Assembly: GCF_000723465.1 (NCBI RefSeq)
Contig: NZ_HF545616.1
Location: forward strand, 1,922,001-1,986,000
DNA length: 64,000 nucleotides
From: Ruminococcus bicirculans (ex Wegman et al. 2014)
Lineage (GTDB): Bacteria; Bacillota; Clostridia; Oscillospirales; Ruminococcaceae
Direction of reading: 5' to 3'
How positions within the stretch are numbered: position 1 is the stretch's first letter; each line of letters opens with the position of its first letter. A program made the position numbers and the translations under genes. Of the stretch, positions 38,339 through 55,133 are shown in pieces. The notes beneath the pieces were generated by a model that saw only the letters and a program-made list of their open reading frames with translations, was not told the DNA's origin and did no database searches.

Positions 38339-38574
38339 GAATTTGCCTCCTTTATTTTTTTCGCCAATATTTATTTTCATGGCTTATATACTATTATACA
38401 TATTTTCTTAAAAAAGTCAATATGATTTTTCAGGCAACAACGCAAGGTTCTTTTTTGGGACTTGTCCGCATATGATGTAAGCAAAGGCAAAAGCACTGAA
38501 AAATCTTGTGCAGTCAAAACGTTTCGCACAATGTTATCAAGGCTATGCCAAAAAATCGGAAAGGAAGATACATT

Positions 38575-41260: not shown

Positions 41261-41298
41261 AGACCGACAGGGCGAAAGCTTTGTCGGTCTAATTTTTT
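41261..41298 (+). terminator. Terminator between the P-ATPase and the convergent ECF operon
   Basis: AGACCGACA (41261-41269) pairs with TGTCGGTCT (41282-41290) and is followed by AATTTTTT. It overlaps the stop codon of the last ECF operon gene. On the minus strand a short TTTTGC follows, so it may also end that transcript. Confidence 0.8.
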
Positions 41299-41975
41299 AA
41301 TCCATATTTTTTATCCAGCCTTTTAAATATCCTGCCAAAAGGTTTTGATAAAACCAGCAGGAAGAACACGTTGGAAACTGCGTATATAAGGGTGAAAAAG
41401 GCTGACGAGCCAACAAGGGCAAGGTATCTGCTGAGAATAAAGGCGTTATCAGCCCACAGACAGCTCCACAAGTCCATGATAAGAGAGAACGCCGTTCCTG
41501 AGATTATGCCGAAGGTAACAAGGAATGGCTTGCTTTTTATAAGCTTATCAGCCAACATTCCTGCAAAATATCCTGTCAGACCCCAAACCAGCATTTGAAA
41601 AGGCGTCCACGCACCTTGTCCGAAATAGAAGTTTGAGATAAGTGCAGTCATTGCGCCTGTCATAAAGCCCGATTCTCTTCCCATATAAAGGGCGGTGATA
41701 ATGACTATAGCGGTGCAGGGCTTAAAGCCCGGCAGAAAGCTGAAAACTATCCTGCCGAAAACGGATAATGCGGTCATGGCGGCTATTATCACAAGCTGTG
41801 TGCTGTCGGAGTGCTTTTTCTCAAAGTGGAGAAAATAGCCTGCCACGGTAAGAATGGCAAGTGCGGCGGTGACGAAAGAATAGAAGCGTTCTCTGAAAAA
41901 CATTATGCCGCCAAAGCACACAAGGGGTATGACAAGAAGATAGATAAGCCCTGACACAAGTTTTTTACTGCTCAT
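41289..41975 (-). CDS. ECF transporter S component (candidate cobalamin-specific)
   Basis: This 228-residue protein has about seven hydrophobic segments. These include VIIAAMTALSVFGRIVFSFL and VIITALYMGRESGFMTGAMT, which show the pattern of ECF S components: an Ala-rich helix 1 region and a substrate-loop region after it. It lies last in the operon, directly after the ECF ATPase, with which it overlaps by 11 bases. The S component decides the substrate. The cobalamin riboswitch at the head of the operon suggests cobalamin or a precursor, like CbrT, but the sequence alone does not prove it. Confidence 0.82.
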   Translation of the reverse strand: MSSKKLVSGLIYLLVIPLVCFGGIMFFRERFYSFVTAALAILTVAGYFLHFEKKHSDSTQLVIIAAMTALSVFGRIVFSFLPGFKPCTAIVIITALYMGRESGFMTGAMTALISNFYFGQGAWTPFQMLVWGLTGYFAGMLADKLIKSKPFLVTFGIISGTAFSLIMDLWSCLWADNAFILSRYLALVGSSAFFTLIYAVSNVFFLLVLSKPFGRIFKRLDKKYGLKN

Positions 41976-43605
41976 ATTGACCTCTTTTCACCATTGCGAG
42001 CCGTTCTCTTACGGCTGTTGACGTCACCGCACCACTGAAAAAGCCCCTTGTGAGCCTTGCGGCGGCGGTGGTGTAAAAGCGATTTTGGGAGAAAAACTCC
42101 ACGGCATTATCCTCTGCGACTATCTTCCCGTCAAAAAGAAGTCCGCACCTGTCGCAGTATTGTGCGGCAAATTCAAGGTCATGGGTCACGAGAAGTATCG
42201 TCCTGCCCTCGTCTTTTAAGCCCAAAAGAATATCACCAAGAGCCTTTTTGGCGAAACTGTCCATGCCCTTTGTACACTCGTCGAGGACTATTATTTTCGG
42301 GTCAGCAAGAAGAATTTTTCCAAAAGCACATTTCTGTATCTCGCCGCCGCTGAGATCCCAAGGGTGGCGGTCAAGGAGATGTTCTATGCCCATGCGCTGT
42401 GAAACATTTTCCACTGTGACTTTGTCACCGCTTTGCAACAGATCCTCACGGACGCTTTCTTTTACAAACATTGTCACAGGCTCTTGTGGCAAAAATGCAA
42501 GCATTTCACGGAAAAGCGAGCCGTTTTTATAGGCTTTCTGCTTTTTGCCAAAAAGGGATACAGCACCCATATAAGGCTTGCAAAGTCCGCATATCACACG
42601 CAGGAGCGTTGATTTTCCACCTCCGTTTGAGCCTAAAAGCCCATAGCACTCCCCTTTTCTGATACCAAGGTCACAGCCTTTGAGGATATCGGGGGAGTTT
42701 TTTTCATATCTCTGCCACAGGTTTTTGCACTGCAGGGCATAAGGCTCAGCACGTTCTGTATCAGTGACAGCCTGCTTTGGAATATCCGTCACACCAAGCT
42801 TTTCAAGCTTCGCCCTGCCTTGTCTTACATTGAGGGGCAGGTCGTCGCAAAGCCTTGCGAACGCCTTGGCGGTTTCGGGAAGAAAGCCCTCCAGAGCGTT
42901 CTCCACAAAATATTTTGCGATCAAGGCAGGCGTACCGAAAAACTCGGTTTTGCCATTTGAGAGATACAAAATTTTGTCGCAGGAGTCAAAAAGCTCCTCA
43001 GGGTCATGCTCGGCAATGATGATAGTCATGCCCATTTCTTTGTTAAGGCGGTCTAAAATGCCAAGAAGCTCCCTTGCGGCAACGGGATCGAGCTGTGCGG
43101 TAGGCTCATCAAGAAGCAGGATATCAGGGTCTGTGACCATGACAGAACACAGAGCGACGAGCTGTTTCTGACCGCCCGAAAGTGTGGAGATATCCCTGTC
43201 ATAGAGCGGCTCGATACCGAAAAAAGCCGCCATTTCACCAACACGGCTTTGTATCTCACCACTTTTCACACCAAAGCTTTCAAGCCCGAAAGCAAGCTCT
43301 GCCGATACTTTGTCGCATACCGTCTGGCTGTCAGGGCTTTGCATTACAAAGCCTATCTTTTCGGCACTTTCTCTATCAGAAAGCTCACTTCTGTCCTTAC
43401 CCATAATGGTGATGTTTCCAGAAAGCTCGCCCCTTGGGGAAAGCTCTCTTTTCAGAAGCCTGAGCAAAGTAGATTTTCCGCTTCCCGAAGCACCGCAGAG
43501 CATTATTTTTTCGCCTTTTTTCACTGAAAAAGTGCAGTCAGAAATGGCATAGTCCGTGCTTTCGTTATATTTGAAAGCTACATTTTCGCAAGACAATATT
43601 TCCAT
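41965..43605 (-). CDS. ECF transporter fused ATPase (EcfA-EcfA')
   Basis: This 546-residue protein fuses two ABC ATPase domains. The first has Walker A CGASGSGKSTLL (about residues 37-48), signature LSGGQKQ and Walker B ILLLDEPTAQLD. The second has Walker A GSNGGGKSTLLRV, signature DLSGGEIQKCAFGK and Walker B IIVLDECTKGMD, where Cys replaces the usual Pro. Two fused ECF ATPases occur in several Firmicutes vitamin transporters. AAAGGAG precedes the ATG. It lies between the genes for EcfT and the S component, overlapping both, which shows translational coupling. Confidence 0.93.
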   Translation of the reverse strand: MEILSCENVAFKYNESTDYAISDCTFSVKKGEKIMLCGASGSGKSTLLRLLKRELSPRGELSGNITIMGKDRSELSDRESAEKIGFVMQSPDSQTVCDKVSAELAFGLESFGVKSGEIQSRVGEMAAFFGIEPLYDRDISTLSGGQKQLVALCSVMVTDPDILLLDEPTAQLDPVAARELLGILDRLNKEMGMTIIIAEHDPEELFDSCDKILYLSNGKTEFFGTPALIAKYFVENALEGFLPETAKAFARLCDDLPLNVRQGRAKLEKLGVTDIPKQAVTDTERAEPYALQCKNLWQRYEKNSPDILKGCDLGIRKGECYGLLGSNGGGKSTLLRVICGLCKPYMGAVSLFGKKQKAYKNGSLFREMLAFLPQEPVTMFVKESVREDLLQSGDKVTVENVSQRMGIEHLLDRHPWDLSGGEIQKCAFGKILLADPKIIVLDECTKGMDSFAKKALGDILLGLKDEGRTILLVTHDLEFAAQYCDRCGLLFDGKIVAEDNAVEFFSQNRFYTTAAARLTRGFFSGAVTSTAVRERLAMVKRGQYEQ

Positions 43606-44444
43606 TTTATGCTCTCCTTTACTTCAAGAATAAACGGGAAAGCGCATAGTAATGCGAACATTCCCACAGGAAAAACGCTGTTTTCAAGCTTTATCACAGG
43701 GTAAAAAGCGGCGGACAGCTCGCCCTTTGCGGAAAAAATCAGCACCAATGCAAAGATAACTGAAAAAGTCGCCACAAAAATGCCGTCCCATGCTCTGAAC
43801 TTGAACGAGTGTGCAAAGCTTCGTTTCTGGATACCATAGCCACGGGCTTTCATTGAAGCGGCTGTGTCCGCTCCCCTTTCAAGCGTGCCTGCACAAAGGG
43901 CTGTGAACACTGTGCAGTCTTTTTTCAGGCGGTCAAAACGGCTGTCGGAGATGTTCGCACCAGAGCAATTCAAAGCGTCCAAAAGCTGTCTGTGAAGCCT
44001 TTTGAGCTTTGGGATAAAGCCCATTGTCATTGTTATCACAAGGGCGGCTTTTGGCGTTTTTCGACCAAAAATGTATAGGAGCTTTTCCCTTGTAAGCACC
44101 TTTCCAAGAGCTTTGCACCACATTATCACAGCGGTGAGGGATAAGCCGGCGGTCAAGCCATAAAAAAGGGCTTCCTTTGTGTAAGCCTTGCCGTTTACGA
44201 AAAACAGCGGCGTTACGCCCTTATGTGAAAAAAGTGGATTTGTGACAGTCAAAACGGCGGTAAGAAAGCTGTAGAAAGCAAGGTCTGATGCGGTCTGTCT
44301 ACAGCTTTGAGTTACGGCACAGAACAGGAACGCTCCCACTGCCGAGCATATACCAACGGCTGGTGAAAAGCAGAACATTGTCACCGCAAGCACAGCCGCA
44401 AAATACACAAGGGCGGTCAAAGGGTGAAAAGCTGACAACCTCAT
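43578..44444 (-). CDS. ECF transporter transmembrane component EcfT
   Basis: This 288-residue membrane protein begins with AFHPLTALVYFAAVLAVTMF, typical of EcfT, and carries MKARGYGIQ with the Ala-Arg-Gly coupling motif that contacts the ATPases. It links ATP hydrolysis to toppling of the S component. The start at 44444 follows AAGGAGG at seven bases; it overlaps the DUF4430 gene upstream by four bases. Its end overlaps the ATPase gene by 28 bases. Confidence 0.93.
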   Translation of the reverse strand: MRLSAFHPLTALVYFAAVLAVTMFCFSPAVGICSAVGAFLFCAVTQSCRQTASDLAFYSFLTAVLTVTNPLFSHKGVTPLFFVNGKAYTKEALFYGLTAGLSLTAVIMWCKALGKVLTREKLLYIFGRKTPKAALVITMTMGFIPKLKRLHRQLLDALNCSGANISDSRFDRLKKDCTVFTALCAGTLERGADTAASMKARGYGIQKRSFAHSFKFRAWDGIFVATFSVIFALVLIFSAKGELSAAFYPVIKLENSVFPVGMFALLCAFPFILEVKESIKWKYCLAKM

Positions 44445-44971
44445 TTCACCGCCTCCTTTGTGTAGTCGCAAACGTAGTAAAACTCCACGCTGTCACCATC
44501 ATGGAGGACATACTGTGAACAGCCCTTATCGGGGCTTTCGCCATTTACAGTGTAGGTCCACCCTGAGGACGGACCGCAGGAAAACTCGTAGATATTGTTT
44601 ATGCCACGGACATACACAGTGTTGTAAATATTATCCTCTGAGCCTTGATAATCAAGGGGTATCTTCCCGCACCTTGTAGCTTTTTCCAACAGATCAAAGG
44701 CGGTGTCGCCCTCACGGAGGACATATTTTTCCGCAGGCATAACAATGCCGTCTGAGGGAACATAGCACTCGTCTCGGAGATTTTTGTCAAGCATATAGTA
44801 ATTATCCAAAATATCAGAGCAATCCACTGTCAGAGTGACAGTGTGAGCGGCATTTGCGGTATCGTCGCTGTGCAGGCTGTAATACTCGTCAACGGATTGA
44901 ATATCAACGCCCTTTATGACCGCTGCCGCTGCTAAAATTATGACTATGAGCAGAGCGATATCCTTTTTCAC
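44441..44971 (-). CDS. Membrane-anchored DUF4430 protein (transcobalamin beta-domain-like)
   Basis: This 176-residue protein has an N-terminal transmembrane anchor (about residues 5-21) and then an extracellular region. Within it is a DUF4430 module at about residues 85-168 with EGDTAFDLLEKATR, the GPSSGWTYTVNGESPDKG core and the LHDGDSVEFYYV strand. The GWxYxVNG and DGDxVxxxY pattern is the hallmark of this domain, which belongs to the fold of the C-terminal (beta) domain of animal transcobalamin and intrinsic factor. It sits between the transglutaminase-like gene and EcfT with four-base overlaps on both sides. It may dock cobalamin, or a surface carrier, at the S component. Confidence 0.85.
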   Translation of the reverse strand: MKKDIALLIVIILAAAAVIKGVDIQSVDEYYSLHSDDTANAAHTVTLTVDCSDILDNYYMLDKNLRDECYVPSDGIVMPAEKYVLREGDTAFDLLEKATRCGKIPLDYQGSEDNIYNTVYVRGINNIYEFSCGPSSGWTYTVNGESPDKGCSQYVLHDGDSVEFYYVCDYTKEAVK

Positions 44972-46989
44972 TTTTCTGCTCCCTTCTGACCTTTGAGCTT
45001 TTTGGCTTTCTTTGCCTGATCTGCGAAATTTTTAACCACTGCTATTTCCTCTTTGATTATCTCGAGCCTTGAAAATCTCGCCTTTTCGTATATTTTCTCG
45101 CACTCTGCAAAGCTTTCCGCCATATCAGCGCCAAAGGTCTTTTTTATGCTCTCGGAAAGCTCCCTTGGCGTATGGTCTGAGAAATCCCTGCCGCAAAGCT
45201 TTTTTCTGCCTGCAAAGAACAGCTTCTCCACCTTTTTGCTGTCAGGCAGAGCGGCAAACTTTCTTTTTCTTACCAAAGCTATTATTGCCACAATAAGGCA
45301 GAGTATAAGTATTACCGCACCGATTACGATATATACCGCATAGCTTTTCTCCGCAGGTTTAGTCTTGTTCTCCTCAAAGATCTCTTCCCTTGGTTTGTCC
45401 TCGTCCTCGGGAGCAAGGGCTTCGCCGCCTTGGTTGGTGGGCTTTGCTTTTACAGAGCTGTCGTCAGTTTTTATCATGCCAACATAATCGGGGCAGACCT
45501 CGAAAGGCTGCCAGCCTATGCCGTCTTTGTAATACTCCGCCCAATAGTGGAGCTGTTTTGAAGTGACGGTCAGGGCTGAGTTATCTGTAAGGCCTTTGGT
45601 CATATCTGATGTGATAAAATATCCTCTGCAAAGCCTAGCAGGAACGCCCTTTGCACGGAAGATCTTCACAGCAGCGGCAGCAAAATCCTCCTCGCCACCA
45701 CGGCAAGTTACCTCAAGCATATCTGCAAAAGAGCTTTCGCCCCCATAGGTCTTTGACCTGTCAAGCACTGCGTCTGACACAAAAAAGCTTAGCATATCAG
45801 ACCGCAGTTTACCCTGAGGACCTTGCAGATCAAAATGGTTTGCGGCAAGCTGTTTGTCCTCGGCTGATATGTCAAGGCAGGTGGAATAAACATAGTCACG
45901 ATAACCCTTTTCTGCGGCAAGATAATCCGCAGGCTCAGAAGTACGCAGGGTATCAAATGTGCCAAAAGGCTTTGTGAGATAGCCTTCCGACACCGCAAGC
46001 CTGTAATAGCTTTTGGTGTTCTCAAAGCTTCCGCCTATTATCTTTGGGTCGGAAAAAGCGTTCTCTGCGGCGGTCATACCATAGGTATAAAGGGGCTTTC
46101 CGCCATTTTTGATGTTTACTGTAACATTGCCGCTGTCGGATATACCAAGGGCATTGTCAAGCAAAGCGGTCTGAAAAGCCGGTGAGAAATCAAGCTTATC
46201 AAGCCAATAAAACTCGTCTGAGTAGGCATATTTCTCCTCACCGCTAAGCTCCCCCCACACGCCGTTAGTTTCTTTCTCAAAACGGCTCTCCAGAAGATAC
46301 AATGGCTGTGGGTGCTCCATTATGATCTCATACTCACTTTTCGTATTAAAGCGATCGGCAAAGGCAAAGTTGGAAAGCTTATCAAAAAGCCCTGTCAGGC
46401 AGGCTATAAGCACTGCGCAAAATGCTGTAAGTATAAGCACAAAGGGCTTCAAATCGCCTTTTATGCTGCCGAAAAACGTCAATGCAAGGATACCTAGCGC
46501 CACTTCTGCAGTGGCATAGTACAGAGGAATATCAATAAAGATACCTGCGCACAAAAACAGCGCAAGCATTGCCACTGTAAAAACTCTGCTGTCAAGACGG
46601 CTGAAAATGCTCTGCACTGTGGAAACTATCACTGCACCCACGCAAAGAGCAAACAAAGGGTCTGAACTTTTTTCCACAAGCATTTCCACTACTCCTGCGC
46701 TTTTACCGTGGGCGGTCAAGACGCAGTTCAAAAGCCCTGCAAGGCTTGTTAAAAACTTCTTGTGGAATATCACCGCCGACAGTAGTGCGGCGAAAAATGG
46801 TATAGGCAAAGTCTTTTTTGATACTCCTGCAAGGGCTGTCAATATGCACACACCTACCAGGACAAAGGCTCGCCAGCCCATACCAAGCGACAATGACAGC
46901 AGGAGCATTGTCACTGCACCAAAAAGGCTCTGCATGATATAAACACCCTTTGAAAAGTGCTTTTCCACATAGCAAACACTAGCTGTCAA
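44968..46989 (-). CDS. Membrane protein with inactive-looking transglutaminase-like domain (TgpA type)
   Basis: This protein of about 673 residues has six or so N-terminal transmembrane helices (to about residue 205), an extracellular part with the transglutaminase-like domain, one more helix near residue 555 and a cytoplasmic helical tail. The core fold is recognisable at FAAAAVKIFRAKGVPARLCR and QLHYWAEYYKDGIGWQPFE. The catalytic Cys position (normally G-x-C-x-D-F-A) reads GGEEDFA, so Cys is Glu, and the later Asp of the DPT-like segment is Glu. The catalytic His is kept. The start is taken as TTG at 46989 with AGAGGTG six bases upstream. It follows DUF58 and MoxR genes, a common trio. A scaffold rather than an enzyme role is inferred. 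Confidence 0.85.
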   Translation of the reverse strand: MTASVCYVEKHFSKGVYIMQSLFGAVTMLLLSLSLGMGWRAFVLVGVCILTALAGVSKKTLPIPFFAALLSAVIFHKKFLTSLAGLLNCVLTAHGKSAGVVEMLVEKSSDPLFALCVGAVIVSTVQSIFSRLDSRVFTVAMLALFLCAGIFIDIPLYYATAEVALGILALTFFGSIKGDLKPFVLILTAFCAVLIACLTGLFDKLSNFAFADRFNTKSEYEIIMEHPQPLYLLESRFEKETNGVWGELSGEEKYAYSDEFYWLDKLDFSPAFQTALLDNALGISDSGNVTVNIKNGGKPLYTYGMTAAENAFSDPKIIGGSFENTKSYYRLAVSEGYLTKPFGTFDTLRTSEPADYLAAEKGYRDYVYSTCLDISAEDKQLAANHFDLQGPQGKLRSDMLSFFVSDAVLDRSKTYGGESSFADMLEVTCRGGEEDFAAAAVKIFRAKGVPARLCRGYFITSDMTKGLTDNSALTVTSKQLHYWAEYYKDGIGWQPFEVCPDYVGMIKTDDSSVKAKPTNQGGEALAPEDEDKPREEIFEENKTKPAEKSYAVYIVIGAVILILCLIVAIIALVRKRKFAALPDSKKVEKLFFAGRKKLCGRDFSDHTPRELSESIKKTFGADMAESFAECEKIYEKARFSRLEIIKEEIAVVKNFADQAKKAKKLKGQKGAEK

Positions 46990-47006
46990 AATTGTCACCT
47001 CTTTTA

Positions 47007-47975
47007 CTATTTTATCTCGATAACACGGCTTATGCCGCTTCTTTCAAACAGCTCTGAAAACTCCGTCAGCCGCTCTTTTCCCTGCTCAGGCTGTGAAGAA
47101 AGAAGGCTGTCCAGAGCGACAGTGAAGCTGTCTGCGCTGTCGATATGCTCGAAAACTTTTCTCTGCTGAGAAAAGCTGTAAAACGCCATGTAATGCCCTA
47201 TACCGCCGTCTGAAAGATACATTGAAAGGCTCAGTGCCTTTGCGGCAATGCGGTCATAATCCGTTGCGAGGACATTTCCGCCTGTTTCAACGTAGATACA
47301 AAGGCTGTCAGTAACAGGCTCGCCATATTCACGGACGTAGATATCACCAAGGCGGAAGGACAGTTTCCAGTGCACCGATTTATAGCTGTCCCCCTGACGA
47401 TATTCTCTTATTCCGATAGGCTCGCTGTGGTCAAAGCCCTCGTTTTCATTGCTGAAAAAGTCGCTTTCAAGGGCTTCCTTGAGATTTGCTTCCTCGCTCT
47501 CATCTATCTCTGCAGCATCAGGCATTATGTTCACACTGCCCTTTATTTCGCACTGCGCCTTTTTCCATGTTAGCCCTGTAAAGTCAAAGGCTCTAAGTGT
47601 CAGAAACTCTGCTTTTATCTTTCCGCAGGTGTCGCTTTTTACAGTGATATCCACCTGAACAGGCTCTCCGCTGATGATAAAATGCACCTTTATATCATCG
47701 CACTGTCCTGTGAGCATATTTCTAAGCCGCAGTTTACCGCTGTATTCGCCGCAAGTTCCTGTGAAGATAAATTTTAGGCTCATGTCCTTATTTTTCAAGC
47801 CTGTGCCGTCGCTTACCAGTGTTGCAGACAGCTTTTTCTTCGAGAATATATTTACACATACTGACAATACAAAAAGCACTGCGCACAACCCAAGCACCGA
47901 TATGCCAATGGGCTTTTTCAGCACAAAAAGCAGTATGCCCAAAGCTGTGCAAAGACAGAAGCCTAGCCTCTTCAT
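47007..47975 (-). CDS. DUF58 domain-containing membrane protein
   Basis: This 322-residue protein has two N-terminal transmembrane helices, a beta-rich region and the DUF58 core, IGIREYRQGDSYKSVHWKLS, followed by the DIYVREYGEP segment. DUF58 proteins have a von Willebrand A-like fold and nearly always accompany MoxR ATPases and often transglutaminase-like membrane proteins. The group is thought to help assemble or mature surface complexes. The ATG overlaps the MoxR stop by four bases, and the next gene follows after 17 bases. Confidence 0.9.
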   Translation of the reverse strand: MKRLGFCLCTALGILLFVLKKPIGISVLGLCAVLFVLSVCVNIFSKKKLSATLVSDGTGLKNKDMSLKFIFTGTCGEYSGKLRLRNMLTGQCDDIKVHFIISGEPVQVDITVKSDTCGKIKAEFLTLRAFDFTGLTWKKAQCEIKGSVNIMPDAAEIDESEEANLKEALESDFFSNENEGFDHSEPIGIREYRQGDSYKSVHWKLSFRLGDIYVREYGEPVTDSLCIYVETGGNVLATDYDRIAAKALSLSMYLSDGGIGHYMAFYSFSQQRKVFEHIDSADSFTVALDSLLSSQPEQGKERLTEFSELFERSGISRVIEIK

Positions 47976-48904
47976 CTGCGTTTTTCCTCATTCTCAGGAC
48001 ATTTTACGCTTTTAATTATCTCGTCAAGCACACTTTCTGCCGCAAGTCCTGATAGCCTGCCCTTTGCAGAAAGTGATATCCTGTGGCTGCAAACATGGGC
48101 AAAAAAATCTCTTACGTCCTGGGGAACGACATATTCTCTGCCCTTATAGCACGCCCACGCCTTTGCTATCCTGCAAAGTGCCAAAGCACCTCTTGGGGAT
48201 ACGCCCAGAGAAATATTTTCATTATGCCTTGTGGCGTCGCAAAGGTCTGAGATGTAGTCATAAACGCTGTCGTCAACAAAAACAGTCTTTGCCTTTTTCT
48301 GCATTTCTATAAGCTTTTCAGCGGTGCAGACGGCTTTCACATCTGCCAGTGGGTCTGAACTGCTTCGGTCTGACATTATGCTTCGCATTGCCGCCTTGTC
48401 AGGATAGCCCATTGAAAGCTTTATCATAAATCTGTCAAGCTGTGAAACAGGCAGTGCCGCCGTGCCAACTGTGCCTGTAGGGTTTTGTGTTGCTATCACT
48501 GCAAAAGGCTCAGGCAGAGGATATGTTCTGCCGTCAACTGTGCAGGCCCGCTCCTCCATGACCTCCAAAAGGGCAGATTGTGTCTTGCCTGAGGTTCTGT
48601 TTATTTCGTCTGCAAGAAGTATATTCGTCATTGCCGCACCGCTGTGAAAAGTAAATCCCTGCGCCTGTCTGTCAAAAGCCGTATAGCCTGTGATGTCGGA
48701 AGCCACAGTATCAGGGGTGAACTGTATCCTCTTTGTTTCAAGCCCCAAAGCCTTTGAAAACGCCACCGCAAGAGTAGTTTTTCCCACGCCCGGAACGTCC
48801 TCCATAAGCACATGACCCTGCGCCAGAATTGCGGCGAACACCATATCCACCACTTCGTCCTTACCGATTATGACCTTTTTCACTTCATCTGTTATCTCAC
48901 GCAT
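47972..48904 (-). CDS. MoxR-family AAA+ ATPase
   Basis: This 310-residue AAA+ protein has Walker A DVPGVGKTT at residues 36-44, Walker B NILLADEINR, and sensor-like ATQNPTGTVGTAALPVSQLDR. The C-terminal lid has the SPRGALALCRIAKAWA region of MoxR proteins. MoxR ATPases act as chaperones for metallo- or surface-protein complexes together with DUF58/VWA partners. The start overlaps the stop region of the preceding toroid gene by 13 bases. Its presence within a cobalamin-riboswitch operon is unusual and points to maturation of the surface proteins encoded with it. Confidence 0.93.
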   Translation of the reverse strand: MREITDEVKKVIIGKDEVVDMVFAAILAQGHVLMEDVPGVGKTTLAVAFSKALGLETKRIQFTPDTVASDITGYTAFDRQAQGFTFHSGAAMTNILLADEINRTSGKTQSALLEVMEERACTVDGRTYPLPEPFAVIATQNPTGTVGTAALPVSQLDRFMIKLSMGYPDKAAMRSIMSDRSSSDPLADVKAVCTAEKLIEMQKKAKTVFVDDSVYDYISDLCDATRHNENISLGVSPRGALALCRIAKAWACYKGREYVVPQDVRDFFAHVCSHRISLSAKGRLSGLAAESVLDEIIKSVKCPENEEKRR

Positions 48905-50622
48905 TTTTTACCCTTCTTTCTTACCACTGTGAAAACTCCCACTGCGCACAGCACCGCTGCCGCAGATATCACATACACTGTCACGTTTTTATCCTCCGCC
49001 TCTTTTATTATCTCGTCGGCAGAAGTGACCTTTTTCCGCTCGCTTTCAGGAAGCTTTTTTATCCTCTCTGCGGTCTTTTCCAAAAGCTCCTTTTTGTCTT
49101 TTCCAACACTATCAACAGGATAAAGCTCACGGCTTATGATACTGTTAAGGTCTGATATCTCACTGTAAAGCTCGTTAGCCTTGGCGTTCATTTCTTCAAG
49201 CTCTGATATTATCTTATCCCTGTCGGAAAGGCTCTCATCAGCCTTTGCATGGACTAAAAGCACAGCCGTAGCAGTGCAGTCCCCCGAAGTAACACCGTTT
49301 TTTCTCAGGGCTTCAAGCTTGTTCCTGTCGCTTTTTGTAAAGCCTTTCTTGCCCTTATATATTTCCGTTTTCTCGATACTGTATACACAACCGTTTCCAT
49401 GGTCTGTCTGTGCAAGCTCCACTGTGAAAGCCCTGTCGCTCAAGGTCAGGCTGTATTTTTCTGCCGCATTTTCAAGCTCTGCACCGTATCTCACATATGT
49501 GCGTTCGTCACAATCAAGGTCATTGAAAAGCTTCAAGGCTTTTTCTGCGCTCTCCTCGTCTGAGATATCCGAAAGCCTGCCGTTTATGCCGTCAAGCTTT
49601 TCACGCTGTAGAACTGAAAGCTCCTCTCTCATATCGTAAATACGTCGCATCGTAAGTTCAAAACGCTTTTGTGCCGCAAGTGCGCAAAGCGCCTGCCCTG
49701 TGGCAAGCTCGTCAGAATCGCCGCCCTTTTCATGTGAAAATCCACCGTCGCTGTTCTGATAGGAAAGCAGGGCGGTCAAAAGGTCGGAACTTTTCACAAA
49801 ACGGTTGTCAGCTTCGGGGTCGATACCAAGTGAACAAAGTGCTATTACTACCTGCGAATCAGCTTCTGCGCTTCCGAACGTACCTGAGCTGTCCTGCTTG
49901 CCGCTTAGATACTCCACCGCTTTGTCAACGCTTTTTCTAACATCGTCACGGGAAAAATCATTGTAATATGGGGCGATCGCCTGCAAAGCCATTGCGGTGA
50001 TGTCGATATCGCTTTCACCTTTTGACAGCGAAAAGCCACCATCGGTATTCTGCGAAGAAACTATCTTGTCAAGTATACGCTCTCTGTCAAACTCTGCACC
50101 CTCTGGGGTCTTGTAGCCCATTGTATCAAGGGTCAAAAGTGCAAATATCCATCCGTTAAGGCCCTGTTTGCCTACGGAATTATTTTCATCTCTGCCGTAA
50201 ACACCGCCTTTTACAAGGTCTATGCCCCCAAGGTCGGCAGGGTCGCCTCCCATTGCGGAGGCTGTTATAGCGCACCTCTGCCACTCGGTAGCGTTGTCGG
50301 TATCTGAAAGAGCTTTCACACGCTGAGAAAGTGCAGTGAGATAAGCCTCATAGTCCTCCTCAAAACCAAAGCGTGAAATGCCTATGGCTAGCCAATCGGA
50401 GCTTCCTTTGCCTGCGTTTTGCAGAAAATCCCCCGAAAAAATGCTCTCGTCCTGAGAAATGCCCATTTTGTCACGCTGCCACTGACAGACCTTTTCTGCG
50501 CTTTCAGTTATCCTGTCCCTTTTATCTGCGTTATCTGCATTCACCGCAGGAACATTTGTCAGAAGCATTACTGCCCCTGCAAACACCGCCACTAATCTGC
50601 CAAGAAAACCTCTCGTTTTCAA
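48892..50622 (-). CDS. Secreted, membrane-anchored alpha/alpha-toroid protein (terpenoid cyclase/prenyltransferase-like repeats)
   Basis: This 576-residue protein has a signal peptide (cleavage expected after NVPAVNA), then an alpha/alpha-toroid repeat region with QNTDGGFSL, QDSSGTFGS and QNSDGGFSH repeats (about residues 130-330). A helical stretch follows, and the C-terminus has a transmembrane helix (about 548-566) and a basic tail. These repeats are also the fold of the alpha domain of transcobalamin and intrinsic factor. Start TTG 50622 is preferred over ATG 50649 because TAGGAGG, overlapping the previous stop, is six bases upstream. With the DUF4430 proteins it could form a split transcobalamin-like receptor; this is inference. 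No cyclase catalytic DxDD motif was seen. Confidence 0.85.
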   Translation of the reverse strand: MKTRGFLGRLVAVFAGAVMLLTNVPAVNADNADKRDRITESAEKVCQWQRDKMGISQDESIFSGDFLQNAGKGSSDWLAIGISRFGFEEDYEAYLTALSQRVKALSDTDNATEWQRCAITASAMGGDPADLGGIDLVKGGVYGRDENNSVGKQGLNGWIFALLTLDTMGYKTPEGAEFDRERILDKIVSSQNTDGGFSLSKGESDIDITAMALQAIAPYYNDFSRDDVRKSVDKAVEYLSGKQDSSGTFGSAEADSQVVIALCSLGIDPEADNRFVKSSDLLTALLSYQNSDGGFSHEKGGDSDELATGQALCALAAQKRFELTMRRIYDMREELSVLQREKLDGINGRLSDISDEESAEKALKLFNDLDCDERTYVRYGAELENAAEKYSLTLSDRAFTVELAQTDHGNGCVYSIEKTEIYKGKKGFTKSDRNKLEALRKNGVTSGDCTATAVLLVHAKADESLSDRDKIISELEEMNAKANELYSEISDLNSIISRELYPVDSVGKDKKELLEKTAERIKKLPESERKKVTSADEIIKEAEDKNVTVYVISAAAVLCAVGVFTVVRKKGKKCVR

Positions 50623-50632
50623 CGATATCCTC

Positions 50633-52594
50633 CTACCATGTTTTGTCATAGCTATCCTGTGAACCTGTTATATCTCTTCCGTAGGCAACTGTGAACGCAA
50701 GCCTAACAGTGTCGCCGTCGGTGAAGTTCACCTTGCCCATGCCGTATGCAGGCATATTGCCGTTTACAGTGTACACCCAGCCTGAGCCGTAGGTGTAGTC
50801 AAATTCTCCAAGGCTGTCGGCATACTGTGTGTTGCTGTCTGCAATGCCATCATTTTTTATAAGCTCCGCAAGCTCGCTGTTTACTGCTCCACCTGAAAAC
50901 GCACCGCTTTTGTGTATTCGGCTTAGATATCTCTGATCGCCCTTGCCTGTAAAGTCACCTGTGAAGCCGTTTTGCTGAAGAAAACGCTCTATAACGTCAA
51001 CGCCTGTGTCCCCCTCGTATATTGCCACCTCAGAGCCTGCGGCAAGCTGTCCAAGCCCTATGGTATCAGCGTCAAAGCTCATTGTTATAACGCCTGTCTG
51101 CTCGCCCTTTTGTGCGCTGACAGAATTTATGGTATAGGCATGATCCGCATATCTGCCCTCTGGGTCATACACCCTTATTTCAAGAAGATTTGCCCCGCCT
51201 GAAAGCTGGAGATAATAGGCTGAGTTCCTGTCCTGTGCGATACACTCAACAGAAAACCCATTGAGCCAGACCTCGGTCTTGTCGGCATATATCCTTCCGC
51301 CCTGATAGTCCTGTGCGTTAAATCTTAGGGTGAAGCCCGAGCCTTTCACTGTCTGTCCGTTGGTGACGTTTATATACGTTATCTCAGGTCTTGTGGTATC
51401 GTCAGCAATGGGTACATAGGTGACAGTGAAATATCTGTCTATATTTTTGTCACCGTCTTTTGCATAAAGCCTTATACGGTTATCACCGCTTTGGAGGGTG
51501 CAGGTATAATTATCTCTGCCCGAAAGCTTTTTGCCGTTTAGAATAACGCTTAGCTTTGCACTGCCGCTTTGACCTTTCATTCTCGCATAGAAGCTAAAAT
51601 CGGCGTCATTTACAGTGCGGTCATAAAGGTTGGTATCGATGGAAAACTCCGCAGGAGTGTATTTTATCTTAAAGCTTTTTTCAGCCTTTGAGCCGTCCTT
51701 TTCCGCAGAGAGAGTTATAGTATTCTCGCCCTCAGAAAGCTGTGCGGTAAAAGTTTCACCACCGGAAAGCTTTTCACCGTTGACTTTAACCGTCATAGGT
51801 ATTTTATCACTGCCGTAAAAAGCTGTGGCTGAAAATGTTATGCTTTCTGTGTCAGTATCCTTATCCGCAAGGTCGGTATCAAAGGTTATCTCCTTTTTGT
51901 CAAAATAAACTGTATAGTCCTTATAAGCCCTTTTCACCTGACCGCTTTTGTCGGTATAAGTGCAGGCAACACGGATAGTGTTTTTTCCTGCGTGAAGGGT
52001 AACGCTGCCCGAAAACTGATTTACAACGCTGTCGTTCACAGTGACCTGAACTTTTTGCACTGTGAGAGCCTTGTTTTTATGTGTTATTGTGAACTTATAA
52101 AGTGGCTTTTTTACACGCTCGCCCTCTTTTATAGAGGTGGTGAAATATTCTGTGTCAGTGTTCTTTGTAACAGTTTCGGTCTTGCTGTCAGGCTTTTTCT
52201 TTACCTCGTCAGATTTATTTTCACCTTGGGCATTTATGGTAACATTCGTGTTCTCGCCATTTACTGTCGGGGAATTTCCGTCGATTTTGTCAGCCTGCGG
52301 AGAGCTTTCTGTTGTATCTGTATTGCTGTCGCTACTATCAGTGTTATCACTGTCATCTGCCTGTGAGCTGTCCATATCTGAGCTTTCGTCCTTTGGCTGA
52401 GAGCTTGTTTCATAGCCCTCTCCGCCCTGTCCGTCCTCCTCCGCAAGGCTTTCAGACAGTGCTGAAAACGGATTTTCAGGGGTCTTATAACTGCTCATAT
52501 TATAAAAACGCATACACAAAAAAGCCGCTGCGATAAAAAACGCCGCTGCTGACAGCATTATTATTTGCCTGTTTTTTTGTGTATGCTTTTTCAT
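50633..52594 (-). CDS. Anchored multidomain surface protein with C-terminal DUF4430 domain
   Basis: This 653-residue protein has an N-terminal transmembrane anchor (about residues 10-28). A long acidic Ser/Asp/Thr-rich linker (about 45-130) comes next, followed by three or four Ig/cadherin-like repeats of about 80 residues with recurring 'GENTITLSA' or 'GDNRIRLYA' strands. The C-terminus is a DUF4430 domain (about 530-640) with GSGWVYTVNGNMPAYG and FTDGDTVRLAF. The linker would let the C-terminal domain extend through the cell wall. Start 52594 has GTGAG seven bases upstream. The next gene's ribosome binding site overlaps its stop. A weak hairpin at about 52620-52655 separates it from the gene before. 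Confidence 0.87.
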   Translation of the reverse strand: MKKHTQKNRQIIMLSAAAFFIAAAFLCMRFYNMSSYKTPENPFSALSESLAEEDGQGGEGYETSSQPKDESSDMDSSQADDSDNTDSSDSNTDTTESSPQADKIDGNSPTVNGENTNVTINAQGENKSDEVKKKPDSKTETVTKNTDTEYFTTSIKEGERVKKPLYKFTITHKNKALTVQKVQVTVNDSVVNQFSGSVTLHAGKNTIRVACTYTDKSGQVKRAYKDYTVYFDKKEITFDTDLADKDTDTESITFSATAFYGSDKIPMTVKVNGEKLSGGETFTAQLSEGENTITLSAEKDGSKAEKSFKIKYTPAEFSIDTNLYDRTVNDADFSFYARMKGQSGSAKLSVILNGKKLSGRDNYTCTLQSGDNRIRLYAKDGDKNIDRYFTVTYVPIADDTTRPEITYINVTNGQTVKGSGFTLRFNAQDYQGGRIYADKTEVWLNGFSVECIAQDRNSAYYLQLSGGANLLEIRVYDPEGRYADHAYTINSVSAQKGEQTGVITMSFDADTIGLGQLAAGSEVAIYEGDTGVDVIERFLQQNGFTGDFTGKGDQRYLSRIHKSGAFSGGAVNSELAELIKNDGIADSNTQYADSLGEFDYTYGSGWVYTVNGNMPAYGMGKVNFTDGDTVRLAFTVAYGRDITGSQDSYDKTW

Positions 52595-52691
52595 AATATT
52601 CTCACTTTTCATATCACAGAAAATGCCCGCCCCCTGAAAATAGAGGGCGAGTATCCTGCAAAATAACTTATATCTTAATTGTCTTAATTTT

Positions 52692-54752
52692 TTACTTTCT
52701 CTTTCTTGAAACTGTAAGAGCTCCGCTGATAAGAAGTGCAAGACCTGCTACGCAAACGCCTGCTGTCGCACCTGTGTTAGGGTTAGCCGCACCTGCGTTA
52801 TTTGCTGTCTTTGATGAGCTGTCAGCCGCCTTTGATGTGTCAGCACTGCTTACTGACTCTGTGGCTGATGAAGTGGCAGAAGATGTATCCTCAGAGTTTG
52901 CAGAAGATACTGTGCTTTCGGAAGATACGTCAGATGAGCTTACAGAGCTTTCTGCTTCTGATGAAGAGCTTGGTGTCTTGAGTTCTTCAAGCTTTTCCTC
53001 TGCGGCCGTAAGAGCGTCAACATTGCCTACATATTCCTTAAGGTCGCCAAGAGCGTCATAAGCGACTCTTGCTGCCTTGATGTCATTCTCGCTGTCAAGT
53101 GTTATCTCGCCAAGATCACTGATAAGCTTCTCAACAGCCTTTACGCTGTCATAATCCTCTGCTGCAAGAACTGTTACGTTGATAGTTGTTTCAACAGGTG
53201 AAACGGCAACGCCTGTTGTGTTTGCAGCACCCTCTTTTGTCTTATCTCTGTACATACCATACTTGTATGTAACAGTAACGAAATCATCGTCTGCTGTAAG
53301 AGCTGTATCGTCGATAGTCACATAATCTGTAACGTCTTTCTTCACACCGTTTTTGAGAACTGCGTAAACCTTCAAGTCGGAAGCGTCATAAGCTTCGCCC
53401 TCTTTGCATACGGTCTTAGCATTCTCGGTCACAAGCTTTTCCACCTCTGAGCCGACAGCCATTATGTAGCCTGAATCGTTCTTGAAGTAGATAGTGCCGT
53501 TTTCGTCTGCAACAAGGTCAGCTATAGCATACTGTGCCTGAGCACCCGTTGGTGTGAAAAGTGACGGAGCTGTTTTCTTTCCGTTTACTATCTGAGCGTC
53601 AAGAACTTCTGTTACGCCCTTTTTATCCTTTACATAGCGGATAGCGCCTGCTGATGCGTTCTCTGAGAAGTAAACATAGTTATAGCCGTTCTCATTCACA
53701 ACGCCAAGACCTGAGGTCTGTGGATAGCCCTTTGTTTCTGCCTTGTATGCTATCTCAAAGCTGTCAAGGTCGATAACTGCAATAGCACTGCCCTTATAGT
53801 CGCCCCAGCCTGAGCCGTTTACGCCAACATAAGCTCTGCCGTTAAGAACTGTAGGAGTTGATGTGCTTGCGCCACCAAGTGGAATGCTGTCAAGCTTTGT
53901 GAAATTGCCCTCATCGTCTATTGTTGCCTTATAGAAATAGCCGCCGTTAGATGTGAAATAATAAGCGTCTGTATCCTTATCGTAAGAAATAGTGCTTCTT
54001 ACTCCTCCGCCTACTGTATACTCAGTATCTATAACGCTTCCTGAGTTTTTGTCAAGAGTAACTACTCTTGCAGGGTCGGTAGTGTTTGCCTTTGCATTTT
54101 CCATGCCGAGAACGACAAAATCATCAGTTGCATATGCGCCTGCCCAATAGAAACCGCTTTTGTTTGTGAATGTCCACTTTGGTGACTTCTCTTCATCTGT
54201 TGTGTCAGGATCTTCGTCCTTAACGTCTATGCAAACATACTGATCGTTTTTTCCTGAACCATCGTTGCAGAAGCCTGTGTAGATACAGCCGTCATTATAG
54301 TAGATAGGGCTTACAGACTGACCGCCAACGCTGTCCTTGTATACCCACAGCGACTCGAGGGTGTCAGCGTCAAATGCCTGAATTCCGCCGTTAAAGGCTG
54401 AGAATATCATGCCGTCTGCATAAGTAACAGGCTGGATAGCGTAGCTGTTTGTGCCTGCTCGCTGTCCAACAACTGAATCCACAACGCCCGTTTCCTTGTT
54501 CATTCTCATGAGCTTGTCGCCAGATGTATAAACGATATCATCTCCAACGATAGCCACAGGCGACGGACCATCGTTCCAGCTTTTTCCTACCTTAGTTGCC
54601 CAGTTAAGCACTGCGTTATCCGCACTGTCAGGGAGGACTGATGTTGTTACGTTGTTGTTTGTTCCGTCTGAAACAAATGCGCTTACACACACGCTCAGAC
54701 TAAGAGCAGTCGCAAGAGCGAAGCTGGCTGTTCTCAAAATTTTCTTCTTCAT
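52692..54752 (-). CDS. Secreted beta-propeller protein with cell-wall sorting signal
   Basis: This 686-residue protein has a signal peptide and a PQQ/WD-like beta-propeller region (about residues 45-450), with repeats such as DDIVYTSGDKLMRMNKETG, NGGIQAFDADTLESLWVYKD and GSAIAVIDLDSFEIAYKAET. An Ig-like domain, a small helical bundle and a Ser/Asp-rich spacer follow. The C-terminus has a sorting signal: NPNTG in place of LPXTG, a hydrophobic helix and SRKRK. Sortase anchoring is therefore likely. It is the first gene after the cobalamin riboswitch. Start 54752 has AAAGGA upstream. In Bacteroides, BtuG, a beta-propeller, binds cobalamin at the surface; the same role here would be an analogy, not demonstrated homology. 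Confidence 0.87.
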   Translation of the reverse strand: MKKKILRTASFALATALSLSVCVSAFVSDGTNNNVTTSVLPDSADNAVLNWATKVGKSWNDGPSPVAIVGDDIVYTSGDKLMRMNKETGVVDSVVGQRAGTNSYAIQPVTYADGMIFSAFNGGIQAFDADTLESLWVYKDSVGGQSVSPIYYNDGCIYTGFCNDGSGKNDQYVCIDVKDEDPDTTDEEKSPKWTFTNKSGFYWAGAYATDDFVVLGMENAKANTTDPARVVTLDKNSGSVIDTEYTVGGGVRSTISYDKDTDAYYFTSNGGYFYKATIDDEGNFTKLDSIPLGGASTSTPTVLNGRAYVGVNGSGWGDYKGSAIAVIDLDSFEIAYKAETKGYPQTSGLGVVNENGYNYVYFSENASAGAIRYVKDKKGVTEVLDAQIVNGKKTAPSLFTPTGAQAQYAIADLVADENGTIYFKNDSGYIMAVGSEVEKLVTENAKTVCKEGEAYDASDLKVYAVLKNGVKKDVTDYVTIDDTALTADDDFVTVTYKYGMYRDKTKEGAANTTGVAVSPVETTINVTVLAAEDYDSVKAVEKLISDLGEITLDSENDIKAARVAYDALGDLKEYVGNVDALTAAEEKLEELKTPSSSSEAESSVSSSDVSSESTVSSANSEDTSSATSSATESVSSADTSKAADSSSKTANNAGAANPNTGATAGVCVAGLALLISGALTVSRKRK

Positions 54753-54824
54753 TCTTTTCTGTCCTTTCGTTGATACACACTGTTCCGCCGTCAATGCACT
54801 TTTTATGAACACCCCGACCACAGC

Positions 54825-54858
54825 AAAAAATGCCTTTCCGCCGAAACGAAAAAGCATT
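54825..54858 (-). terminator. Terminator in the riboswitch leader (expression platform)
   Basis: On the minus strand AATGCTTTTTCG and CGGAAAGGCATT (plus 54847-54858 and 54829-54840) form a 12-bp stem with G-U pairs and a six-base loop, and further Ts follow. It is about 75 bases downstream of the riboswitch core and 70 before the first ATG, the place expected for ligand-dependent termination. Confidence 0.7.
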
Positions 54859-54934
54859 CTATCCGCTTTACTGCCTGCACAGCGATAAAGCAGACCGTCA
54901 TCTTCATCGCCCAAGACAGAAATAGTCAACGAAA

Positions 54935-55072
54935 ACACAGCAGATACCTGACTTATGACAGCACACAAAAAGCCTGTCAAACACAGTAATGGCGGTTGTG
55001 CAGGATTTGGACCTGCTTCCCTGACGGCAAGGCTTTTGCCCTGACACGCTCTACTCAGCTAACAACTTTTCA
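54935..55072 (-). promoter_or_regulatory. Cobalamin riboswitch
   Basis: Read on the minus strand, the leader contains the conserved cobalamin aptamer core. It has GGGAAGCAGGT (plus 55011-55021 region) with AAATCCTGCAC, then GCCATTACTGT (ending at plus 54983), and the 3' B12-box-like AAGTCAGGTATCTGC (plus 54940-54954). The order and spacing match the known cobalamin riboswitch pattern (GGGAA...GGTG.AAATCC...C.GC..CTACTGT...AGTCAGGAYACCTGC). The exact ends of the aptamer are approximate. The ligand subclass (adenosyl- or methyl/aquo-cobalamin) cannot be told. It controls the ten-gene operon downstream. Confidence 0.9.
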
Positions 55073-55104
55073 AACTGTGCTTTCTTAATATTCACATCAT
55101 GATA

Positions 55105-55133
55105 ATTATACCATATCGCTATGGATTATTCAA
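55105..55133 (-). promoter_or_regulatory. Promoter of the cobalamin-riboswitch operon
   Basis: On the minus strand TTGAAT (plus 55128-55133) and TATAAT (plus 55105-55110) are separated by 17 bases, giving a near-ideal sigma-A promoter. Transcription would start near 55098, about 25 bases before the riboswitch. Confidence 0.8.

What the first reader, a model, noticed from the sequence alone, without database searches (positions are those of the whole stretch)
41289..55133. Cobalamin-riboswitch operon that couples an ECF transporter to split transcobalamin-like surface proteins
One promoter and a cobalamin riboswitch precede ten close or overlapping genes: beta-propeller with sorting signal, DUF4430 surface protein, alpha/alpha-toroid protein, MoxR, DUF58, transglutaminase-like membrane protein, a second DUF4430 protein, EcfT, fused EcfA and an S component. 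Animal transcobalamin and intrinsic factor consist of an alpha/alpha-barrel and a DUF4430-like beta domain. Here these folds occur as separate surface proteins in a B12-controlled operon with a vitamin transporter. A surface capture and import system for B12 in a Gram-positive gut bacterium, partly analogous to BtuG/BtuB of Bacteroides, is the best explanation. I know of no described system with this whole gene set.
Basis: partly seen in the sequence, partly recalled or inferred. Interest (0 to 1): 0.93.

Follow-up and report, generated by a model that had tools for sequence, protein, structure and literature searches.

The report
Bacterial intrinsic-factor-like vitamin B12 importer operon
A bacterium carries a set of genes, probably controlled by vitamin B12, whose surface proteins are relatives of the two-part human B12 carriers intrinsic factor and transcobalamin and lie next to a B12-type membrane pump, which suggests how such bacteria capture B12; the core idea was predicted in 2007 and still awaits a bench test as far as could be found.

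Summary
All ten genes are present on the minus strand, seven of nine junctions overlapping, behind a promoter-like site and a cobalamin-riboswitch leader. The leader scores 27.7 bits (cut-off 31.5), but its core is nearly identical to above-cut-off riboswitches in three of the four named loci that share the full ten-gene order.

The gene set is conserved: of 75 named loci (the best kept of 107 confirmed), 60 have toroid + EcfT + EcfA and 52 a same-strand cobalamin riboswitch. The S component's only clear solved relative is CbrT, a proven B12 transporter subunit (profile E 1.9e-17). In 11 of 40 family stretches the toroid and DUF4430 parts are one protein joined by a membrane hairpin; in the window they are two proteins. 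The predicted structure of a fused relative matches intrinsic factor, transcobalamin and haptocorrin as its top 15 PDB hits, across both domains. The genome has one MetH-like protein over the B12-binding cut-off, no CbiD and no BtuC-type permease.

Best explanation: a membrane-tethered, intrinsic-factor-like B12 trap feeding a CbrT-type ECF importer. B12 scavenging by such operons was proposed in 2007, so this is a new variant, not a new kind. B12 binding and transport are untested.

The parts
55105..55133 (-). promoter-like site TTGAAT-17-TATAAT with TG before the second hexamer
   Evidence: 1 found, 0.9 expected by chance in shuffles
54922..55073 (-). cobalamin riboswitch aptamer (divergent)
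   Evidence: 27.7 bits, below cut-off 31.5; same place and core as the above-cut-off riboswitches of L072, L073, L081
54825..54859 (-). terminator-like hairpin with U tract between aptamer and first gene
   Evidence: -15.2 kcal/mol, z -4.6 (string picked by eye); hairpins of other sequence at the same place in three relatives. Not listed by the consensus scan
52692..54752 (-). secreted, NPXTG-anchored BamB/PQQ-type beta-propeller protein
50633..52615 (-). surface protein: N-terminal membrane segment, cadherin-like domain, C-terminal DUF4430 (start inferred)
48892..50649 (-). alpha/alpha-toroid protein with N-terminal hydrophobic (signal-like) segment and C-terminal membrane helix
47972..48904 (-). 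MoxR AAA+ ATPase
47007..47975 (-). DUF58 membrane protein
   Evidence: (19.6 bits, below its cut-off of 23.4)
44968..46998 (-). membrane protein with transglutaminase-like domain
44441..44971 (-). DUF4430 (transcobalamin-type beta-grasp) protein with N-terminal membrane helix
43578..44471 (-). EcfT (CbiQ-like) membrane coupling protein
   Evidence: (23.8 bits, just below 25)
41965..43605 (-). fused double ECF ATPase
   Evidence: TIGR04520 311 bits, cut-off 315, two stretches
41289..41975 (-). S component of the CbrT family (predicted B12-binding subunit)

Best explanation
This is a B12-repressed uptake operon for cobalamin/corrinoids. When B12 is scarce the leader lets transcription pass a terminator. 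The cell then makes wall- and membrane-anchored surface proteins, among them a toroid protein and a DUF4430 protein that are the two halves of an intrinsic-factor/transcobalamin-like clamshell, each held to the outside of the membrane by one helix. The clamshell traps B12 between its halves and passes it to a CbrT-type S component, and EcfT plus the fused EcfA ATPase drive import. The vitamin would serve the cell's MetH-like methionine synthase. Shown here: gene set, family relations, fold of a fused relative, conservation, riboswitch association. Inferred: that the two halves pair, bind B12 and hand it to S; that the riboswitch is an OFF switch; the roles of the propeller and of MoxR/DUF58/transglutaminase (perhaps assembly or maturation of the surface complex).
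For: S component: best PDB relative 6FNP chain A, 1.6e-7 with the single sequence (next 3kih, a lectin, 0.0097) and 1.9e-17 with the family profile (only other hit up to E 1: 4HZU_S, 1.1e-4); 6FNP is the solved ECF-CbrT B12 transporter. Fused relative L141: Foldseek ranks 1-15 are intrinsic factor, transcobalamin and haptocorrin, 549-579 alignment columns with gaps, so both domains are spanned; terpene cyclases follow from rank 16 over fewer columns. Toroid + membrane hairpin + DUF4430 as one ORF in 11 of 40 family stretches and 1 of 75 named loci; hydrophobic segments of the split window proteins match the hairpin. Same-strand cobalamin riboswitch in 52 of 75 named loci, 47 of them within 1 kb of the next operon gene, and in 12 of 26 family stretches with DUF4430/ECF neighbours against 0 of 14 without (Fisher p 0.003). 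Own genome: one B12-binding-domain protein over the cut-off, MetH-like, no FecCD/BtuC permease, no CbiD, DUF4430 only in this operon.
Against: The window's riboswitch is below the Rfam cut-off and lacks one base against relatives. L107, with the same ten-gene order, and L096, with the first six genes before its contig ends, show no cobalamin riboswitch. In the family, 8 of 19 EcfT + EcfA stretches have none at the locus, and four of those genomes (G055, G065 of the same genus, G071, G113) have none at all at E <= 0.1. The DUF4430 profile found no transcobalamin chain in the PDB by sequence, and toroid profiles found terpene cyclases. The whole-protein superposition is poor (rmsd 23-24 A, TM 0.28-0.49; pTM 0.60), so domain placement is not shown. 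No B12-contact residues were mapped. Pfam's best S-component name is a riboflavin one. The MetH match is below NCBIfam's cut-off (403.9 against 1010.9).
Confidence: 0.86

Rival explanations
1. The system imports corrinoid precursors or other cobamides (for example cobinamide) rather than B12 itself.
For: Homology cannot fix the corrinoid; PMC6593275 says members of both B12 transporter families, CbrT's included, import both B12 and cobinamide (passage).
Against: No CbiD in the genome; late salvage genes were not searched. It differs from the main reading only in the ligand.
Confidence: 0.25
2. The S component carries riboflavin or another vitamin, and the leader is coincidental.
For: Pfam ECF-ribofla_trS is above its cut-off (37.0 against 26.7).
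Against: The PDB profile search finds CbrT at 1.9e-17 and lists only one other chain up to E 1; cobalamin riboswitches recur at the operon in 52 of 75 loci.
Confidence: 0.04
3. The toroid protein is a terpene cyclase or prenyltransferase-like enzyme unrelated to the transporter.
For: Sequence searches alone give terpene cyclases and prenyltransferases first.
Against: With the fold, intrinsic factor and transcobalamin outrank cyclases; fusion to DUF4430; ECF neighbours in 60 of 75 loci.
Confidence: 0.03
4. The operon is right but the window's own riboswitch has decayed and no longer responds to B12.
For: 27.7 bits, one base missing in a stretch conserved in relatives (GGATATC to GGTATC), shorter peripheral region; it is the only hit in the genome.
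Against: The core is otherwise nearly identical to relatives, and a terminator-like hairpin is kept.
Confidence: 0.15

Closest known systems
Transcobalamin-clade SLBB proteins of low-GC Gram-positive bacteria (Burroughs et al. 2007, PMC1796856)
   Same: Secreted toroid + beta-grasp proteins, a second paralogue in the operon, CbiO/CbiQ genes, lack of key B12 synthesis genes, proposed B12 scavenging, propeller fusion (abstract, passages, part 1 of section 7 and the reviewers' section seen).
   Different: The main text does not contain riboswitch, MoxR, DUF58, transglutaminase or S component; hairpin-tethered and split forms are not described in the parts seen.
ECF-CbrT of Lactobacillus delbrueckii (6FNP, PMC5997447, passages)
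   Same: S component homologous, with EcfT and ECF ATPases.
   Different: CbrT shares an ECF module with FolT2 and acts as the binding protein itself; here the S gene has its own EcfT/EcfA and candidate extracellular binding proteins beside it.
Animal intrinsic factor, transcobalamin, haptocorrin
   Same: Two-domain toroid + beta-grasp fold.
   Different: Bacterial forms are membrane-tethered and sit in an importer operon; 10-14% identity; the window has the halves as two proteins.
BtuG/BtuH/BtuB of Bacteroides (PMC6143338 seen in a search listing only; PMC8941943 passages)
   Same: Surface proteins in riboswitch-bearing B12 transport loci; some have propellers.
   Different: Outer-membrane system of Gram-negatives; here an ECF importer, and the propeller is BamB/YxaL-like.

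Membership tests
Cobalamin riboswitch RF00174 | Score at or above the Rfam gathering cut-off | tested here: not met
   27.7 against 31.5 bits
Cobalamin riboswitch RF00174 | Full-length aptamer match with conserved core | tested here: met
   Model 1-189, E 5e-5; core shared with above-cut-off riboswitches of L072, L073, L081. I call it riboswitch-like by its place and core.
Cobalamin riboswitch RF00174 | Ligand response | not testable with these tools
   needs in-line probing or a reporter
CbrT-type ECF B12 transporter | S component homologous to CbrT | tested here: met
CbrT-type ECF B12 transporter | EcfT and EcfA present | tested here: met
   in the window EcfT is just below the CbiQ cut-off and EcfA just below the TIGR04520 cut-off
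CbrT-type ECF B12 transporter | B12 binding and transport | not testable with these tools
   bench
Transcobalamin clade of SLBB proteins | Beta-grasp domain with two-strand insert after the helix | tested here: met
   Model of fused relative L141: helix 498-509, then strands 513-515 and 521-524, then 537-542 and 561-567 (reading the two short strands as the insert is mine). The window protein aligns at 50% but was not modelled
Transcobalamin/intrinsic factor two-domain fold | Alpha/alpha toroid joined to this beta-grasp domain | tested here: met
   In fused relatives; in the window the two are separate proteins
Transcobalamin/intrinsic factor two-domain fold | B12 sandwiched between the domains | not testable with these tools
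   contact residues and complex not modelled
BtuG | BtuG-type propeller | tested here: inconclusive
   BtuG not among the 50 Foldseek rows shown of 1313 at E <= 0.001

The most novel reading that the evidence does not exclude
An ECF transporter that, unlike the usual type whose S component alone captures the substrate, depends on a dedicated extracellular binding protein: a membrane-hairpin-tethered bacterial intrinsic factor that hands B12 to a CbrT-like S component, with a MoxR-DUF58-transglutaminase module that builds or services the surface complex. Animal B12 carriers would be the released descendants of such a bacterial receptor (a transfer from Gram-positive bacteria to animals was itself proposed in 2007).
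Probability: 0.4. Interest if true: 0.85.

Novelty: new variant of a known kind. Interest (0 to 1): 0.64.

Why it matters
Identifying B12 transport systems in numerous gut genomes is called an open problem (PMC6593275, passage). This operon, found in Clostridia and Bacilli including cultured species, gives a complete and testable gene set: regulator, two-domain trap, S component and pump. It would show an ECF importer working with an external binding protein, and it ties human intrinsic factor and transcobalamin to a living bacterial counterpart.

Tried and rejected
The default Rfam scan listed nothing; the leader appears only with the E-value setting. Sequence-only PDB searches with toroid and DUF4430 did not reach transcobalamin; the fold search did. 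The first genome-contig scan, with the toroid alone, found no relative; a six-sequence alignment worked. The first two alignments of fused + toroid + DUF4430 rows were wrong, with toroid C-termini pulled onto the DUF4430 columns; DUF4430 rows were removed until it was right, so 16 of 56 such rows were used. The BtuG analogy was tested by fold and not borne out in the rows shown. Literature searches for a described system of this kind turned up PMC1796856 as the only paper describing such proteins in such operons; the library holds open-licence papers only. A search for the host species with B12 showed no paper naming it among the 20 listed of 876.
Full report
WHAT IS THERE. The window lies at G000:C1:1922001-1986000 of a 2,968,500-base genome in two contigs, C1 being 2,240,877 bases. 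Two replicons of that size recall Ruminococcus bicirculans; that name is my recollection, no call gave it. The ten genes claimed are present on the minus strand; seven of nine junctions overlap by 4-31 bases. Domains are as claimed. Three identities are weak in the window alone: DUF58 (19.6 bits, cut-off 23.4), EcfT (23.8, cut-off 25) and the propeller (no Pfam hit; seen only in the model). All three are backed by relatives.

THE LEADER. A full-length cobalamin aptamer match lies at 54922-55073(-), 27.7 bits, E 5e-5, below the cut-off of 31.5; it is the only one in the genome. Four named loci have the full ten-gene order: L072, L073, L081 and L107. The first three have above-cut-off riboswitches (38.2, 58.6, 37.0 bits); L107 has none that was found. 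The alignment of the window with those three shows a shared core, one base missing in the window (GGATATC to GGTATC) and a shorter peripheral region. All four of these leaders carry a hairpin with a U-rich run between aptamer and first gene, different in sequence: -13.5 to -15.8 kcal/mol, z -2.6 to -4.6 (strings picked by eye). This fits transcription termination in high B12. The consensus scanner did not list the window's hairpin.

CONSERVATION. In 148 genomes of the family, 45 (the window's included) have a toroid match. I fetched 40 stretches from 38 of the other 44 genomes; six genomes were not followed. EcfT and EcfA relatives lie in 19 of 40 stretches, and in 11 of 40 the toroid and DUF4430 parts are one ORF. 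A second search gave 75 named loci, the best kept of 107 confirmed relatives (80-locus limit), from Clostridia (many MAGs), Bacilli (Siminovitchia, Lysinibacillus, Pseudogracilibacillus, Sporosarcina, Caryophanon, Kurthia), Anaerovorax and Desulfosporosinus. The two sets overlap: L075 and L125 have the contig lengths and contents of G094:C45 and G059:C1, many MAGs look like close kin, and two loci (L092, L143) share a genome, so the counts are not independent. Of the 75, 60 have toroid + EcfT + EcfA, all 60 with a DUF4430 protein, 51 also with the S component; 21 have MoxR, 18 MoxR + transglutaminase-like, 16 MoxR + DUF58; one (L141) has toroid and DUF4430 of the D2 type in one ORF. The MoxR module sits between toroid and second DUF4430 gene in L072, L073, L081, L107 and L118, but after the ECF genes in the Bacilli and in L082. 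The different placement argues for a functional link rather than one inherited accident.

RIBOSWITCH ASSOCIATION. Family: 39 of the 45 genomes were scanned; 32 have a match at E <= 0.1, 29 over the cut-off. A same-strand riboswitch lies in 12 of 40 stretches (one, L059, below cut-off). All 12 are among the 26 stretches with DUF4430/ECF neighbours and none among the 14 without (Fisher p 0.003; classes set by hand). Of the 19 EcfT + EcfA stretches 11 have it; of the 8 that lack it, four lie in genomes with no match at all (G055, G065, G071, G113). Named loci: searches placed hits. I accepted same-strand hits with the AG(T/C)C(A/G)G core in their last 60 bases, because contig numbers could not be matched to records; this gave 53. 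A direct scan confirmed L113 and did not confirm L132, which I dropped: 52 of 75. In 47 of these the next operon-gene homologue starts within 1 kb. Of the 23 loci without one, ten (L076, L077, L085, L092, L112, L114, L126, L131, L133, L142) have their first homologue within 700 bases of the locus edge, so a leader may lie outside. L096, with the first six genes of the window's order before its contig ends, has none, nor has the same-genus genome G065.

THE TRAP. Fused relatives read hydrophobic N-terminus, toroid, two membrane helices with a short basic loop, DUF4430. In the window the toroid protein ends in one membrane helix and the DUF4430 protein starts with one. So the split falls in the loop, which the charge pattern suggests is cytoplasmic, and both domains would stay outside. 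The AlphaFold model of the fused relative L141 (pLDDT 81.1, pTM 0.60; toroid mostly above 90) has two short strands after the beta-grasp helix, as the transcobalamin clade is defined (PMC1796856, passages). Against 350,542 PDB chains its first 15 matches are intrinsic factor, transcobalamin and haptocorrin (E 4.7e-8 to 7.7e-6) over both domains; terpene cyclases follow. The overall superposition is poor (rmsd 23-24 A, TM 0.28 to 0.49), which I put down to the unplaced linker. By sequence alone the link to transcobalamin was not found. The window's own two proteins were not modelled; they align at 44% (toroid) and 50% (DUF4430) to L141.

THE PUMP. The S component's best PDB relative is 6FNP chain A (1.6e-7; family profile 1.9e-17, only other hit 4HZU_S at 1.1e-4). 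6FNP is the ECF-CbrT vitamin B12 transporter (PMC5997447, passages). Pfam names the family riboflavin-type, but the profile search lists no further S component up to E 1.

THE HOST. One B12-binding-domain protein over the cut-off, an 800-residue MetH-like ORF (TIGR02082 403.9 bits over the part held, below its cut-off); no FecCD permease of the BtuC type; no CbiD (one marker only); DUF4430 only in this operon. Of other importer families only FecCD was searched genome-wide; NrdJ, BtuM, other S components and salvage genes were not.

THE PROPELLER. Model pLDDT 83.9, pTM 0.85; the best PDB matches are designed propellers, BamB and YxaL; BtuG is not in the 50 rows shown of 1313 at E <= 0.001. Nine relatives were aligned; four of them are parts of 1470-1789-residue ORFs, of which one, L121, was scanned and also bears DUF4430. 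A propeller fused to this beta-grasp domain was reported for a Clostridium protein in 2007.

PRIOR WORK. Burroughs et al. 2007 (abstract, passages, part 1 of section 7 and the reviewers' section seen) predicted B12 scavenging by such proteins in operons with CbiO/CbiQ. The main text contains no riboswitch, MoxR, DUF58 or transglutaminase. [quoted passage not shown] A 2019 survey calls identification of B12 transport systems in numerous gut genomes an open problem (PMC6593275, passage). My searches listed no experimental study of this operon in the open-licence library.

VERDICT. Real, conserved, and very probably a B12 uptake system; a new, more complete variant of a kind predicted in 2007. 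What is new here, as far as these searches show: recurrent riboswitch control, the CbrT-family S component, the hairpin-tethered and split forms of the trap, and the MoxR-DUF58-transglutaminase partner module.

Noticed in passing
L032:4464-7637, L034:4366-8214, L042:1229-7225: These relatives' operons open with a very large toroid protein (1057, 1282 and 1998 residues), ending in a hydrophobic, sorting-signal-like tail, in the place where the window has the propeller; this suggests a relay from wall to membrane (tails read by eye).
   Followed up: partly
window 54901-54916 (-): A 16-base block TCTTGGGCGATGAAGA just downstream of the aptamer is invariant in the window, L072, L073 and L081 and was not found at the leaders of the other loci held; function unknown.
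   Followed up: partly
L072:18885-19547: The S component loses homology after about residue 200; probably a frameshift in that MAG.
   Followed up: no
L134 (Desulfosporosinus sp. PR): Two toroid-EcfT-EcfA sets in tandem, in a genome with 14 cobalamin riboswitch matches.
   Followed up: no
L121, L139, L142, L088: The propeller is embedded in 1470-1789-residue ORFs; in L121 it is joined to DUF4430 and Ig-like domains.
   Followed up: partly
window 38506-41256 (+): A large cation-transporting P-type ATPase-like gene lies convergent to the operon, 32 bases from the end of the S gene (identity by eye).
   Followed up: no
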